NCBI GenBank assembly: GCA_022818135.1
Contig: JAFMSR010000001.1
Location: 1,333,921-1,397,920 of the forward strand
Length of the DNA stretch: 64,000 nucleotides
From: Saxidomus purpurata
Lineage: Eukaryota; Mollusca; Bivalvia; Venerida; Veneridae
Reading direction: 5' to 3'
Positions 38,501 through 47,500 of this stretch are shown here, piece by piece. Within the stretch, counting starts at the first letter, position 1. Each line of letters opens with the position of its first letter. A model generated the notes under the pieces. The model ran no database searches, was not told the origin of the DNA, and was given only the letters and a program-made list of their open reading frames with translations. The translations under genes and the position numbers were made by a program.

Positions 38501-41500
38501 TAACTATATTTGTAAAAGTATTTCATAATAAAAATAACAAAGTTGCTGAAATAAAATAATATAAATCATTTTAATTATGGTTATGCAGTATATAAAAAGA
38601 AATTTCATTCGGTAGCACTGCAATATTAAAAACATACAAGAGAGGTGAAATTATCATATATCTTGAAATATTACCCTATGCTCATAATCAAAGAGCAAGA
38701 TACTTAATTTATTTCATTCATTTTATTACAAAATCTTATGTGTTTAAGTTTCAATACAGAGGTAAGTGGAAATTTTAAAATCTGCTACTTCATTTATCAT
38801 TTTCAGCAAAACTCTGATACAATTGTACTTCCTGGATATATTTCATTCAAATCTGTTCTTACTTTTTATATCTATTTTCTACTTAACATCTGACGAACTA
38901 TTAAACTGTTACCACATCAGGCACCTATATAGAAGTGTTTTTATCTCCATATGTAATTATCACCGCTTTTAAAACAAATTTTACCTACGGTAATGTGGTG
39001 CTAGACAAGTTACCTGAAATAAATATTAATGTTTGAATTAAGAAAACATGATATACGTTAACTACAGAGTAGATGACTAACCTGGATTCATTGTAAAATT
39101 GATCTTTTCTTCACCTTCCAGGGTCACGTTAAAAGGGAGGTCCAGCACACATTTATTTCGTAATCTTCCGCTATATAACTGCATACCGACTAAAGCAAAT
39201 ATTGACAACACAAATGACGTCAGAATACCGACGTCACGTAATCTAATAACGGCTTCCAGTAAGGCACCCACGATGGTTTTAAGACCTAGAAAACAAAAAA
39301 TAATATTCTTCTTAGCTTGCTATTCAGTGTTAGGGGATATGGCGAGGTAACGCAATTCTTAATAGTGTACTGGAACTCAAAGTATTTGATGTAAAAATAG
39401 AACGGTTATTCGCATACTTACTGGTTGCTATAGGTATATTAGGGCACTTTAATTTAGGTTATTGCAGCACTAATTAAACGCTACTTTATTCAGCTAAGCA
39501 GCCACATATGGAAATACAAAAGTAACAATTACCAGTAAAAAAAATAATTTGCTATTGACAATGACCGCCATTTACCGAATATTTCACGGAAAGTAGCGAC
39601 ATTGCGCGACATTTGCCTATCCATTAGGAACTTTGTTCCTTAATTTACTTACCAGGTACTACAGCTACGGTTTTTAGGGCTCTCAGCACTCTAAAGGTTC
39701 TCAGGGCAGACAGATTGCCTAATTGCTTGATAAACATTGTCATGTACCTGAAATATTACAGTATAAACTATACAATAATTTGTTAAAATATCGAAAATAA
39801 AGTGTTGTGTGATTTTTTTGCCTTTATCAACACTGAAGTACTTTGAAGAAAGGAAAATATTGATTCAAGATTATTGTGAAATTTCTGCTGTGCAACGTAT
39901 ACAGCTCTGTGCCGAATAATGCACGGTTCCTTTTAATGTAAAGCTACCAAATGCGCATTGTTTTATTGTAATTAAATCTAAAGAACCAATATCGGACTAG
40001 CCATCTAATCACACTGAAAGTTTATGTAAAATTGTTTCCAAATTATTCCATGAATGGCACTGTTATGGTTCGGGCGAAACACTGTTAAGATATTAGCTTA
40101 AATACAAAACAAAGCATTTGAGCTATAGTTCTGGTTTTGTGAAAAACATGTAGGGATACAGTCACACGAAATTATTTTCAAACCATTCTTAAGATGACAG
40201 TAGAAATGGCAAACTACAGCCCTGGCAAGATCGGAAAGACCACCCTATGGACAGACGCACTTACATGCATTCACCAAACCACCATCCACCATATAGCCAT
40301 GATCGGCTTCTCACACAACCCCGGTTTACAGCAACGACATATCTAAGGATACGACTTAAATACTTTGTATTTGTATAACTTTATACCATTATAAAATGTT
40401 AATTATTTTGCATACATACGCTATGGCTATCACACCAAAATCCAGCCAGTTCCATGGATCTCTGAGATATGTAAACGGTTGTAAAACAAATCCTCTGGCT
40501 GTCATTTTAACTACTGATTCTACTGTATAAATGCCCGTGAACACGTACCTGTAAAATGTTCATAAACACCTTGTACACGTTCAGTCGTGGAATATAATTA
40601 TTCGTATCATCATAGTGTATTTTAATATATAACAATGTAGAATAAAGCAGAGTGGAATTAAGACAATATCGAGTTAAACAGTGCCTAAACAATGTGTATT
40701 TTATATGGTGGCATATATCTGCCGTAAGATAACCACTTAAGGTTCGCAAATTAAAGCGTGTTAACAACATAAGCACATCGATGAATATCTGGTTATCTAA
40801 TTAACGTTATTGATACATTAACCGTAAGATATCTGAACAGAAATAATAGTCGAAGTGACAACACAAATTTTATTTAGAAAACCCGTTAACATTTAAATAA
40901 TAAAAGAACTTAACTGATTGCAGTTCTGGGGACTATCAGGGCTTTTACTTCATTTTTGTTAAGATATTTATTGGACGGTGAATTTATCTAGAGCGTTTAC
41001 TAGAAAACTAGATATCGCGATAATTGTGTGTATAACAGGAATTAGTTCATGAACCTTAACTGGTTATTTTACGATAATTGAGCCCATTAAATTCTAAATT
41101 AAGTATAGACTTTGAATAAATAGTGTTTAGCATATCAATGTAATATTTTGTTTTGTAAGGGTTTTGCATCTATATGAATTGTGCAGATACATATTTTTGC
41201 AAACCAAAAATTTGAAAATGAACAACGAGATAAAGCCATTATAATACAAAAAATTCTACTTGAAAGGCATTTTTAAGTGTATATTGTATGTGGAAAAAAT
41301 TCGAGTTATTATGTTTTTGATATAGCGAGCTAAATTGTTATGTAACTAATACACAGGTATCTTCTTTCTTTGGCAACAATATATGGATACAGAAAATACT
41401 ATGTAGAAGAATAGATAAAATATACATAGTCGTTAAGTTCATGTCTGTTTCATGTCTATCATGTTCATACGAAATTTCAATTGTTTTATTTATTATATGA

Positions 41501-44500
41501 AGTGGTTATTATCACTTCATGTTTTACTATGGTTAAATTATTGTTTAAGTGATTTTAACGGCGTTAAATGAAGAAAATAAATTTTTGACGTCACCAAAAG
41601 CATCAATATTTTCGTTTTTTTAAGTACGTCAAGAAACTATTCAGTGTGTTAAATAACTTTGCAATGGTATGTTCTTTGTAATGAAAACAGACGCTGAAAG
41701 AGATGAGAACATTACGACCGTTGGAAGATACCTTCGAACATCGCTTTCGTGGCCTTGATATCTAAGACCAAGTCCGTAAATATAATAAAGACAAGTCAAT
41801 AGTGCTAACACTTGGTGAATGAATTATAAAACCAAATGACGTATGATTTTAAAAAATATCATAAAAATAACGCAACCGGAAGTCATTAAGTTTAGTACTC
41901 GCTTTTGAATATCATCCTTTCCAACATGAGACAACATAATTGCTGATAATTAAATGCTGGTCAAATCTTTGAACACTAGACCAAACTTCGTATTAGAATT
42001 GTATTACCCGGGCCCATCAACATAGTTTCGACTGTCGCAAAGGCGGAATTAATTTCAGAAGATAATGAACAATATAAAGCATAATTTCCATCCAAAACGA
42101 AGTGAAGCACGGAACGATATTCTCAGTTCTGAAAAAAACTAGCAAGTTTGCAGCTTGTTCGAAGGTATCAAGGGACCTAAATACATGTGACTTACTCTGC
42201 CACAGTAGAAACTTCCTTTGTATGGTTAATGGTCATGAACACGCAATTTGCTAGAATGGTGAGCATAACAAAAATACTAAACCATGTGAACATATGTTAA
42301 GGAAATCATAGGTGCACAAATATAAACGTATTACAAAACCTAGGACAAAACAGAACTTTTAAAACAGTGCAAACTTTGGTGGAATGGATGAAACACAAAG
42401 TATATTAATAAATGTAATTAGTAGTCATTCAATTTTCTTTGCATTGATTCTGGTAAACATGTGTATTTTAATGGAAAAATTTGAAAAAGTAAATAATGTG
42501 TTTAAACCGTTTACACCAAAGCGTCAGTTCTTACGTTTAAATGAACGTTTTAAAATCATATAAAGTTATAAGTTACTACTTCAAGAAAAATAAATATTGA
42601 CCTCTAAGTTCGAACTTTACATGTCAAATAAATAGCATGCATATACAATGGTGTAAACAACAAAGCTGGCCAGACAATATTTGTTAAATTCATAAAATAA
42701 ATGTTTGTCTTCGGAATTAATAAGTATATGACGTGATTAATGCAATTTTTAAAGTACATGTACATATTTTTTATGAAAAGTGTGTTGTAATGAACCAACC
42801 CCCCTTAGGAATTTGTTTATTAGATTTACACACGACACTCTGCAAAATGCACGCAGTTAATACTTCTGTGTGAAAACAGGACAGCATTGAACAAAGAGTT
42901 TTGAGTTTTATTAGAATGTTAAACAGAGGCATCAAAACTTCATTTAAGGTATGTATAAAGAGACCAAAACGCTTAATGTTTAACAGACAACGAACGGCAT
43001 TACGTTCGATTATATACCGACTGTTTAAGGATAAAAGCGTGCTGTTCATTTAATGAACTACTGAAATATCTAAGGTTTTTTCCTTTCTATAAGGAAAACA
43101 ACTGCATCAACACGTGTTCCTGTTTGCCAAATGAGAGGGGAAGCACTGTCATTAAGGTACATTTTTAAACCACACGGTAGTACGTATCCCTTTCCACACT
43201 AAAAAGATCGACCCGAATAGACAGAAAATGAATTAGCTAAAAGGAGTTACTGAACAGAAGTATATTTTTTTCAACCAATGATAAAAATAAGTGAAGAAAC
43301 ATAAAAATTATATAGAAAAAAAAGTCAATGCTATTTCCGTGACTATACTATTTCCGTGACTATACGTGCATGCACATGCATCTCATGCATAAAACGTTGA
43401 GACGGGAAAGAACTGTGCACTGGAACTTACTCCGTGTATTCTCCCCCTGGCGTCTCAGTGAACGTCATAAATATACAATTCACAATGATAGTCAGTATAA
43501 CTAATATACTGAACAAAGTAGATATAGTTAAGGAGCGTTTAGAGATACAATAGTATAACCACATGCTAATCAGTCCTCGTTTTGCTTTCCTTATAAGTAA
43601 AAGCAAATGTTACAAGCTGATATGCAAAGCTTAGGCAATGCATTTATGATGTGGAATACTTCAAGGAATGATATATAATACTTTAAATACATTTTAACCA
43701 CCTTTTTGAACATGTGTAGAAAACTTTTGAAAGATTTATCACTTTAAGTACAAAACCTGTATTTCCGTGTATATACTGTTCAATTATTGTCACTCGCAGA
43801 TTTTTTTTTATATATTTGCAGTGGCTTTAATGTGGCTTTGATATACCCAAAAGTCTGTCAAATATATTCAAGACAGAAGAGAAACATATAGAGTTGTTTT
43901 AGAGTTGTGTTAAACAATGTTTGGAAGTTATACCAGTTTGAAATGAACAAAATAAATTTATGTCCGAATGTCTGATGAAAAAGCAAAACGAGAAAAGTCT
44001 CGACACGAACATAAAAAGAAACAATATCTAGGCAGTATCACCAGATACAATATTAGAAATATGTAACCATGGTAACAGTATGTGCCAAAAGGTGTCTGCC
44101 GCTCATCCCGGACGTTGCGGGTTCGAGCCCCACTAGGATCACGGCCGTACCTCCTCATATGACACCAGTACTGGTTTTTCCAGGAAGCGGACTTGAGAGT
44201 GACTCGATAAGCTACAAGCTGTTTTCACAATCGAGCCAAAATTAATTAGTATGATAATAATAATATTCGAAGAACAGTATTGAAAAATATTGATTTCAAA
44301 CTCGGAACCAAAACTTAGTTTTATCAAAACGCCTTTGACATTTACAATGTAGAGGTATCAGAAGCAAACGTACAATTGCAATTTTACACATCCCACGTAA
44401 GCGACCTATTTACAAACACGGACACACATACATTTGGCCAGAATATGCGCTCTAAACGATATTTTCAAAAGCGCCATTCACTTCAGCAAAACACTACATT

Positions 44501-47500
44501 GTGCACAATGAACGTTATACATGAATCGTGTAAATTTGATAAGCGTACAATACAAAACATTCCTGATTTACATAGAACATTGTAAAGCTATATCAAGCTA
44601 TATTATTAAGTTTTGAGCAATGTACCGCCTTAGCAGTAATACTCTCTGTTGCAAAAACGTCGAGTGACGATAGACCTTTATTGACATATTTTCCTTATAT
44701 TCTGCCGAAATTCATTGGTATTACATTATGGGTAGGAATTGTGCAAACATTTTGAGCAAATATTCAAACAAATGATGGTGCTAATACCTAAAATATTATG
44801 TCACTAGATGTTACGAAATATCTTGCTAATCAAGTTCTTTTAACATGACTTACAGCTAGATGTAACCCTAAATCTCAAAATTACTTGAATTTTATACATA
44901 ATTCCTTGCCTTTAGGAACCGTGAAACGGGCTTACATGTTGTTTGTTTTTACTCCATGACCTTTTTCTGTGGTAATGGGGCATAACTTTCTACTATAACA
45001 CTTGTAATGACGTACCAGTAAGATTAATTTGAATACTGGTAGCCAAGATGCGACAGGGAAGTATGTATTAAATTCAACAAAACCTTTCCAATCTAGGGGG
45101 CTATCTCAAGCTGTAAGAATTGAAGAATATAGTAGGTATGACATTTCCCATATCTCTTTTGTAATCAGTAGGCTTGTGATGTGTGTCTCGGAGTTGCCCT
45201 TCCGTAACCTTTAGGTTTCCATACTGTCCATGAACAAGATACATTTATATACTTTTAAACGTAAGATTGCAACGAATGTCTAACGTTACCTTTAACTATT
45301 CAAGCATATTAAACAATGGCATATATTCTGTTTAAATATTTCAAGAAACGTTATAGTTTTGCATTTGCGAATGGCTGTAATCTTTGGTTGGGGGTCAATG
45401 TTTGTGGAAAACAGACAAAAGGTAGAACTACACTTAATTGTCAGTTCCAACAAGAGAAGTGATTTCATGCCAATATATAAATTGTACAAATCACAACTTA
45501 GCGTTTTGAGAAAAAAAAGAAGCAATAAAGTAAATACATACTCGGATTTTTCATTCAATCAGATAAAAAACAGTAAGTTTAACAAATGCTTATAGAAAAT
45601 AACTTTCTAAGAAATAAGCGAATAAAATTTGAAATTTTATAAAGGATATGGATGAACAAGAAGGTAGAGGGCGATTCTACGTAAGATGTTGAATGGACTG
45701 AGAACAAAGAACCCGTCTGTGGCGCTGAATCGGAAAATTGTTTTGTCTCTTCCAATCACACAGAATGTCTGCAAAAAGAAAAACACGAACATGAATCCTT
45801 CAACTTTCTATCAGATATAAGTTAACTCAATGTGGAGACAGAGTATTTTGACCTAAACAAAATTGATAAGTGAATGAGGAAAGTTGATCACGTGATAATT
45901 GTTTATATTTCCTACAAGGCAATTCTCTAATTTCTATGAAAATTATTAAAATTTAAACTGAGGTATACTGGAAATTTGTGACCGACTCTTTTTTATATTA
46001 ATGTATTTTGTACTGTGACTAAAAACACACCTATCAAGGACATTGCAAAAATCCCTGAACAAACAAGATAGTTTTTAAAAGTAAAGCTATACAGAACATG
46101 GGAGCTGTGGGCAAATGTCACGTTATTACAATGATCATTTCCCATGCAACATAAATGTCACAGTTTTGATTCGTTAATTAACAAAATGACTCATATGATA
46201 ATAAGTTATATAATATGACATATAAAGTTAATAATTTTATAAAATTTTGCAACAGACTGCATTTATCATATATTCATGTCGGTACAAACAAAGTTGAGTA
46301 AATAGAGTTTTCGTTCAAAATTACAAATAAACATTCTGTTGAATACAATCTTGTGTTTTCCTGTTTTACAGAAATTTATGTAATATCTTTTGGTTTAAAA
46401 CTAATATAACATGATACTCTCCAATATTCTTTCTCTGAAGTTTACTTGAATTCAGCAATGCCGAAGTGAATCACAATCTTTACAAGTTACTACCGAGGAA
46501 CGCAAAATTGTCAGTACAGTCTCTTTCCAGCAGTTAAAACATCTTTCCTCGTCGACTATTTAATGTAAATGCGTACATTGAGGAGAAAACAAAACACCAA
46601 TAAAACTAAAACATATAGAAATAGAAATGTGTTAACAAGTTTTAGGACACAGAAAAATTTACCTTCTTATTTTGATAAAATTCATCTATATCTTCTAACG
46701 GCCGACCAATATGCTCCGGTTGAAAGAAATCTTCCAAGGTTGGTGGTAGCTTTTTCCCGGCTTCAAGTTTACAATTTGGTTTAATTACTTCTTCCGCGTG
46801 AGCTGGTTCGTCGTCATCGTCGGAATTGGCGGCTGCCTCCTCGGCGGCCTAATGGAAATAGTATCATATGTCAGTAGAAATAATCATACTATAAAATATC
46901 TTAGTCTTACTAACATTACTTTGTAACTCTTTGTTTTCCATTTTTCTGAAGTGCGAAGGTGTGCGTTCAATATTTTTGTCCAGCATGCTTTTTTATCTGA
47001 TCAAGCAAAGCAAACAGGTGAAAAACTGTTAACGTGAGAAAGTCGTCTGCTGTAATGTAATACACATATTAATCAATGTTTATTTTTTCTTCTTAAGTAT
47101 TTATGTATATATATTACTTACAGAATTTTATTTGTATTTCATGTAATTGTGTGCAGTCGATGATATAAATCAAATTTTACTGTCAATTACTTTCCTCGAC
47201 ATACATGTTATTTTAAGACTTAATTTCACCATTGCATCATTATTTTACGATCGGGAACATGCATATATAAATGATTCCGAAATAATAAAAAAACCCATTA
47301 ACTTAATTTTCGTAAAATAAGTTCGCAACAAATTATATTGAAAGCTTATATAAGGCTCCGAATAGTATCTGTGAAAAGCTGTGATGCCTAGAGACTTGTT
47401 GTTTTATAAGTATAATCACTTGAATGTATCACGATCAATATGTCTGCCACGTTAATACTCTATCTGACTCATGCACATCACAAGTGCCGTTAGAAAGATA

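What the first reader, a model, noticed from the sequence alone, without database searches (positions are those of the whole stretch)
42196..45650. Two alternative domain I S1 exons made mutually exclusive by U12/U2 spliceosome incompatibility
Seen: one ATATCCTTT (U12 AT-AC) donor at 45649 and two downstream exons, 5a and 5b, each with an AC acceptor and a U12 branch site (CTCCTTAAC; TTTCCTTAAC), each ending in a U2 GTAAGT donor. The exons encode paralogous S1 helices and the S1-S2 loop in the same phase. Known: U2 donors are not joined to U12 acceptors, and this logic is described for a few duplicated exons such as those in JNK-type kinase genes. Inference: 5a cannot be spliced to 5b, so exactly one S1 is used. 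S1 lies beside the voltage sensor, and 5b adds an N-glycosylation sequon, so gating and surface expression may differ. I know of no report of this in Nav genes.
Basis: partly seen in the sequence, partly recalled or inferred. Interest (0 to 1): 0.92.

Follow-up and report, generated by a model that had tools for sequence, protein, structure and literature searches.

The report
Either-or S1 exons in sodium channel
A nerve sodium-channel gene of an unnamed animal carries two alternative versions of its first membrane helix, arranged so that two incompatible splicing machines should let each messenger RNA contain exactly one of them; the logic is known from a few other genes, but I found no report of it in a sodium channel.

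Summary
On the minus strand lies a Nav1 gene. Exon 4 ends in a perfect U12 donor (ATATCCTTT). Two downstream exons, 5a (87 nt) and 5b (90 nt), each have a U12 branch site, an AC acceptor and a U2 GTAAGT donor, and both encode domain I S1. A scan for that architecture, made without homology, returns exactly these two places in the 64 kb. Silent sites are saturated but protein is conserved, so neither exon looks like a relic or recent copy. The genome has U12 and U6atac RNA matches.

Double inclusion and double skipping would both stay in frame, so splice-site type is the guard left. The intron is the ancient D1S1 U12 intron of Nav and Cav genes; the S1 duplication behind it is what I find unreported. 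The layout mirrors JNK. Corrections: an in-frame U2-like AG inside 5b makes "cannot" too strong, and the 5b sequon lies close to the membrane. New lead: three UGCAUG motifs 42-62 nt after 5a suggest Rbfox control. No transcripts and no other species could be tested.

The parts
45650..45768 (-). exon 4 (119 nt), upstream constitutive exon, ends in phase 2
45641..45649 (-). shared U12-type AT donor ATATCCTTT
   Evidence: chance level of the string alone
43527..43535 (-). U12 branch site CTCCTTAAC of 5a (one mismatch to TTCCTTRAC), 9 nt before the exon
43518..43519 (-). AC acceptor of 5a
43431..43517 (-). exon 5a (87 nt), S1 and S1-S2 loop, [28 protein letters not shown]
43425..43430 (-). U2 donor GTAAGT of 5a
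43369..43389 (-). three TGCATG motifs, 42-62 nt after 5a, possible Rbfox sites
   Evidence: noticed before it was tested
42286..43430 (-). hybrid intron between 5a and 5b: U2 GT donor, U12 AC acceptor, 1145 nt
42296..42305 (-). U12 branch site TTTCCTTAAC of 5b (exact consensus), 10 nt before the exon
42286..42287 (-). AC acceptor of 5b
42196..42285 (-). exon 5b (90 nt), S1 and S1-S2 loop, [29 protein letters not shown]
42277..42278 (-). AG inside 5b that could act as a leaky U2 acceptor, in frame with 5a
42190..42195 (-). U2 donor GTAAGT of 5b
40420..40548 (-). exon 6 with U2 AG acceptor, common downstream exon (S2-S3)

Best explanation
Exons 5a and 5b are an old tandem duplication of the domain I S1 exon of a Nav1 gene, lying directly behind the conserved U12-type D1S1 intron. 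Shown: the sites, frames, homology and protein-level constraint. Inferred: exon 4's U12 donor can be joined only to a U12 branch site with an AC acceptor, that is, to 5a or 5b, and not to exon 6, so at least one S1 is used; 5a's U2 donor can be joined to exon 6 but not to 5b's U12 acceptor, so at most one S1 is used. The choice is then a competition of two U12 branch sites for one U11/U12-bound donor: 5a is nearer but has the slightly weaker branch site, 5b is farther but has the exact consensus. A UGCAUG cluster just downstream of 5a may tilt the choice to 5a in cells with Rbfox (neuron or muscle). The product is one of two Nav1 channels that differ in S1 and the S1-S2 loop of voltage sensor I.
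For: The architecture is unique in the window. Both spliced models are open. Both exons are Nav S1. Over the first 20 codons 5a and 5b differ at 3, 2 and 15 sites in codon positions 1, 2 and 3; over 30 codons pS is 0.93 (saturated) and pN 0.31, so both have been held as protein. A DNA comparison of the two stretches finds only chance-level matches (best E 1.1), yet branch site, AC and GTAAGT are kept in both. The genome has 2 full-length U12 RNA matches and 3 U6atac matches. Two Cav genes of the same genome (Cav2, Cav3) have the same U12 branch plus AC in front of a single S1. Exon lengths are multiples of three: 4-5a-5b-6 and 4-6 would be in frame and open, so neither frame nor decay can enforce one exon. 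U2/U12 incompatibility is an accepted, rare mechanism (five human cases, 0.79% of clusters, PMC5740500 passages; PMC6071210 passage). UGCAUG cluster.
Against: No RNA evidence. No other species: the protein database was switched off and two contig collections, which are viral and prokaryotic, gave nothing. A U2-like AG inside 5b could allow 5a-5b joining in frame. The UGCAUG cluster was noticed before it was tested, and the sense-strand excess of TGCATG over the window is only 9th of 138 hexamers of the same composition. The single-S1 control rests on 2 of 5 other channel loci looked at; in three the S1 was not found or has no such intron. The passages that I read of the oyster Nav1 cDNA study do not mention S1 variants (PMC5295241), though variants were told apart by size, which could hardly see an 87/90 nt swap.
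Confidence: 0.74

Rival explanations
1. Both exons are used, but the lock is leaky or not the main guard: 5a and 5b are sometimes joined through the U2-like AG inside 5b, giving an in-frame channel with two S1 helices, or the choice is made mostly by protein regulators or RNA structure.
For: AG at 42278-42277 keeps the frame when joined to 5a; its simple acceptor score is at the 69th percentile of 341 AGs in the region, and one of the ten acceptors scored as real (D3 pore b) scores lower, at the 42nd.
Against: A two-S1 channel would break the four-domain topology, so it should be selected against; the AG lies behind a poor pyrimidine tract. The AC acceptors and U12 branch sites have been kept in both copies.
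Confidence: 0.13
2. One of the two exons is an unused relic, and the gene makes a single S1 in practice.
For: No transcripts were seen. Many duplicated exons are lost in evolution (general knowledge).
Against: Protein-level constraint between the copies with saturated silent sites, open frames, intact branch site, AC and GTAAGT in both, and Nav similarity of both.
Confidence: 0.09
3. An assembly error or two alleles laid side by side mimic a duplication.
For: A search for allelic copies in the assembly did not complete.
Against: Silent sites are saturated (pS 0.93) and the surrounding sequence is unrelated, which alleles would not be.
Confidence: 0.02

Closest known systems
Mutually exclusive exons of the JNK genes (MAPK8/9/10)
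   Same: A hybrid U2/U12 intron between two alternative exons prevents joining them, and the choice is tissue-specific (PMC3584512 passages; Mapk9 and Tmem87b in PMC6717393 passages).
   Different: Mirror image: in JNK the hybrid intron has a U12 donor with U2 branch and acceptor, and the shared U12 site is the downstream acceptor. Here the hybrid intron has a U2 donor and U12 AC acceptor, and the shared U12 site is the upstream donor. JNK sequences were not compared here.
D1S1 U12-type (AT-AC) intron of Nav and Cav genes (intron 2 of vertebrate SCN genes, recalled)
   Same: Same segment, same donor ATATCCTTT and branch TTCCTTRAC (PMC6259924 passages).
   Different: The passages read there mention no second S1 exon; here there are two. 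In this genome Cav2 and Cav3 show one.
Other mutually exclusive exons of Nav genes (vertebrate 5N/5A in D1 S3-S4; insect para sites; recalled)
   Same: Tandem duplicated exons that swap part of a voltage sensor.
   Different: Different segment (S1, not S3-S4); as I recall those are ordinary U2-type exons. Exon 7 here, the 5N/5A counterpart, shows no second copy.
Rbfox-controlled mutually exclusive exons such as C. elegans unc-32 exon 7
   Same: An intronic UGCAUG guides the choice of one exon (PMC3585155 passages).
   Different: There the motif lies in intron 7b and favours 7a; here the cluster lies after 5a. Binding was not tested.

Membership tests
Voltage-gated sodium channel, Nav1 type | Four-domain channel with Nav sequence similarity in order | tested here: met
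   tblastn with a recalled Nav bait finds N-terminus to D3-D4 linker collinear in the window and D4 on the adjoining stretch L009; best PDB matches are Nav.
Voltage-gated sodium channel, Nav1 type | DEKA selectivity filter | tested here: met
   MTQDYW (D1), LCGEWID (D2), ATYKGW (D3); TSAGW (D4).
U12-type AT-AC intron | Donor ATATCCTT | tested here: met
   starting at 45649.
U12-type AT-AC intron | Branch site TTCCTTRAC about 10 nt before an AC acceptor, for each acceptor | tested here: met
   5a one mismatch at the first consensus base, 9 nt before the exon; 5b exact, 10 nt.
U12-type AT-AC intron | Minor spliceosome RNAs present in the organism | tested here: met
   U12 RNA, U6atac. U11 and U4atac were not searched.
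Mutually exclusive exons by U2/U12 incompatibility | Exactly two neighbouring homologous exons with a mixed-type intron between them | tested here: met
   no third S1-like copy stood out between 46.5 and 40 kb.
Mutually exclusive exons by U2/U12 incompatibility | Transcripts hold one or the other, never both | not testable with these tools
   No RNA data at hand.
[quoted passage not shown]
   87 and 90 nt; double and zero inclusion stay open.
Mutually exclusive exons enforced by steric hindrance | Very short distance between donor and next branch point | tested here: not met
   The intron between 5a and 5b is 1145 nt.
JNK-type layout | U12 donor on the upstream alternative exon and shared U12 acceptor downstream | tested here: not met
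   Both exons have GTAAGT donors and exon 6 an AG acceptor.
Rbfox-regulated exon | UGCAUG close downstream of the exon | tested here: met
   Three copies 42-62 nt after 5a; binding and effect not testable here.

The most novel reading that the evidence does not exclude
A single Nav1 gene makes a family of channels by combining three tandem exon swaps: S1 of voltage sensor I (locked by the minor spliceosome and steered by Rbfox), the domain III pore loop, and the D3-D4 inactivation linker. The ancient D1S1 U12 intron thus serves as a logic gate that guarantees exactly one S1, which would give this rare intron a regulatory role beyond being conserved.
Probability: 0.35. Interest if true: 0.75.

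Novelty: new variant of a known kind. Interest (0 to 1): 0.6.

Why it matters
The U12 intron in domain I S1 has been kept in almost all animal sodium and calcium channels (PMC6259924 passages), without an agreed reason that I know of. Here is a gene in which that intron would do something concrete: force a one-of-two choice of a voltage-sensor helix that reading frame could not force. It predicts that the levels of the minor spliceosome and of Rbfox set excitability isoforms, and it can be tested with a few cDNA reads and one minigene. It also adds S1 to the parts of a Nav channel that may be swapped by splicing.

Tried and rejected
Frame, decay and steric hindrance as causes of exclusivity: rejected (the intron is 1145 nt).

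Significance of the donor alone: rejected as evidence (2 on the minus strand and 0 on the plus strand, 2.75 expected per strand).

A third S1 copy: none stood out (the next best matches between 46.5 and 40 kb have E 0.14 or worse).

Similarity of the DNA around 5a and 5b as a dating aid: nothing beyond chance.

Relatives in viral contigs and prokaryote genome contigs, searched for stray host DNA: 22 and 198 pattern matches, none confirmed.

Same-genome control: five other channel loci were looked at. C2 (Cav3-like) and C6 (Cav2-like) show a U12 branch plus AC before one S1. S1 of C11 (Cav1-like) was not located. C18 (Nav2-like) has S1 in one piece with no intron at that point. C185 has an S1-like segment in one piece and its domain was not settled. 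So the control is 2 of 5. A stricter S1 motif filter found neither the C2 nor the C6 exon, because it forbade charged residues; those two rest.

A first version of the cryptic AG calculation in 5b cut one base short and wrongly showed a frameshift; one search corrects it.

Search for an allelic copy and for paralogous S1 exons in the assembly: not completed.

Papers: 10 searches. The statement that I found no report of duplicated S1 exons in a sodium channel rests on nine of them (one search was for Rbfox). Four of the nine were answered with capped or loose lists: one search showed 20 of 393, one search showed 12 of 41, one search showed 15 of 84, all ranked by the tool; the other six showed every paper found. 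It also rests on passages, not whole texts, of PMC6259924, PMC4436565, PMC5295241, PMC9741552, PMC5740500, PMC6717393 and PMC2831892. PMC9013439 was looked up and held none of my terms. Most subscription journals are not held and supplementary files could not be read, so the five human U2/U12 cases could not be named.

Correction to the paragraph above: the capped lists are three of the nine; some searches listed every paper found.

Full report
What was checked. The window's minus strand holds a sodium channel gene. A tblastn with a Nav bait (recalled, used only as bait) finds, in order, the N-terminus (51.4 kb), domain I, domain II, domain III and the D3-D4 linker (2.5 kb). Domain IV follows on the neighbouring stretch of the same contig. 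DEKA residues are in place in all four domains, so it is Nav1.

The finding itself. Exon 4 (45768-45650, 119 nt) ends in front of ATATCCTTT. Exon 5a (43517-43431, 87 nt) and exon 5b (42285-42196, 90 nt) each follow a U12 branch site and an AC, and each is followed by GTAAGT. Exon 6 has an ordinary AG acceptor. Models through exons 2-8 with either exon are open and in frame. Against solved structures the two versions of exons 4+5 match 31 sequences each, all sodium channels. Pfam Ion_trans begins at profile position 1 with 5a (128.2 bits) or 5b (133.4 bits) and at position 39 if both are left out (105.2 bits).

Is it more than chance? The donor alone is not (2 on the minus strand, 0 on the plus strand, 2.75 expected per strand). 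The combination of branch site, AC, open exon of the right length class and strong U2 donor occurs twice on the minus strand and never on the plus strand, and those two are 5a and 5b. Loosening the branch site by one mismatch adds none. Random sequences give a mean of 0.00 and 0.05 per strand (100 sequences). This scan used no homology, so it is independent of the S1 match.

Are both alive? Aligned, 5a and 5b (with the flanking split codons) share 15 of 31 aligned columns, 13 of the first 20 residues. Differences fall at 3, 2 and 15 sites in codon positions 1, 2 and 3 over the first 20 codons, and at 9, 8 and 23 over 30. Silent sites are saturated (pS 0.93) with pN 0.31. A DNA comparison of the two stretches gives only chance-level matches (best E 1.1). 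The duplication is old, and both copies have been kept as protein and as U12-acceptor exons.

Why splice-site type must be the guard. 4-5a-5b-6 and 4-6 both read through without a stop, so decay would not remove them. The intron between 5a and 5b is 1145 nt, so crowding does not stop it. What is left is that 5a-5b would need a U2 donor with a U12 acceptor (GT-AC), and 4-6 a U12 donor with a U2 acceptor (AT-AG); such end pairs are described as disfavoured and the two site types as generally incompatible (PMC3584512 passages). If 5a's intron is simply left in, translation stops at once, because GA|GTAAGT reads GAG TAA (for 5a; 5b has the same letters there). So retention is exposed to decay, and the two errors that decay cannot see are the two that spliceosome type forbids. 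That step is inference from established splicing rules; no RNA was seen.

Conditions. The genome has two full-length U12 RNA matches and three U6atac matches, all over the family cut-offs. U11 and U4atac were not searched. In the same genome the Cav2-like and Cav3-like loci carry the same branch-plus-AC signal in front of a single S1. Of the three other loci looked at, the Cav1-like S1 was not found, the Nav2-like gene has no intron there, and C185 was not settled.

A weak point. Inside each exon the F-S codons create an AG (last base 43509 in 5a, 42277 in 5b). In 5a it scores like a fair U2 acceptor (93rd percentile of 341 AGs), but exon 4 has no U2 donor to use it. In 5b it is weaker (69th percentile), but joining 5a to it would keep the frame and make a two-S1 protein (the score is a rough matrix of my own).

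Regulation. Three TGCATG motifs lie 42-62 nt after 5a. It is the only place on either strand of the window with three in 40 nt; random 64 kb sequences had such a place in 1 of 200 (order 1) and 0 of 200 (order 3). None lies in the 250 nt after 5b. UGCAUG is bound by Rbfox proteins and guides a two-exon choice in C. elegans unc-32 (PMC3585155 passages). I saw the cluster before testing it, and the sense-strand excess over the whole window (33 to 14) is only 9th of 138 composition-matched hexamers, so this is a lead.

The protein consequence. In the first 20 residues, S1 of sensor I changes at 7, and the S1-S2 loop changes almost wholly. Both keep the NC pair and the FMT motif seen in human Nav channels. 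The 5b loop has N-H-T, but its N follows directly on FMTI at the end of S1. From memory, N-glycosylation needs roughly a dozen residues of clearance, so I would not rely on it.

What is known. The D1S1 U12 intron is published as conserved in almost all Nav and Cav genes (PMC6259924 passages). U2/U12 exclusivity is published and rare: five human clusters (PMC5740500 passages), "quite uncommon" (PMC6071210 passage), JNK (PMC3584512 passages), Mapk9 and Tmem87b (PMC6717393 passages). JNK is the mirror layout. I found no report of a duplicated S1 exon in a Nav gene in nine searches of an open-access library (three of them with capped lists). The oyster Nav1 study told variants apart by size (PMC5295241 passages), which a swap of 87 for 90 nt would easily escape.

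Verdict. A real, well-supported instance of a known but rare logic, in a new gene, a new channel segment and the reverse layout from JNK; unproven at the RNA level. The same gene has two more tandem exon pairs (domain III pore loop and D3-D4 linker), which makes the wider reading, a single Nav1 gene diversified by three exon swaps, worth testing.

Noticed in passing
window 8332-8276 and 8055-7999 (minus): The domain III pore-loop exon is also duplicated: [19 protein letters not shown] and [19 protein letters not shown], 57 nt each, AG acceptors, silent sites saturated, 14 of 19 residues equal. They differ (E or S) where human Nav1.5 has D two residues after the W of KGW, an outer-vestibule position (recalled).
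   Followed up: partly
window 4001-3894 and 2591-2487 (minus): The D3-D4 linker exon with the inactivation motif (MFM here) is duplicated: 108 and 105 nt, AG acceptors, GTCAGT donors, 30 of 35 residues equal, pS 0.83, pN 0.10.
   Followed up: partly
window 23827-23483 (minus), domain II pore: The outer-ring residue of domain II reads D (LCGEWID) where the human-like bait has E. As I recall, the same E to D change is the natural saxitoxin-resistance variant of softshell clams; the oyster paper reports Q in its domain II site (PMC5295241).
   Followed up: no
window about 44180-44090: A stretch resembling a tRNA-derived short repeat (GGTTCGAGCCC-like B box on the plus strand) lies in the intron between exon 4 and 5a, seen by eye.
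   Followed up: no
G000 contig C18:19618547-19618733 (in locus L020): The Nav2-like gene of the same genome has S1 in one uninterrupted stretch, so the D1S1 intron seems lost there although it is described as conserved in Nav2.
   Followed up: partly
whole window: TGCATG is more frequent on the gene's sense strand (33) than antisense (14); rank 9 of 138 hexamers of equal composition.
   Followed up: partly
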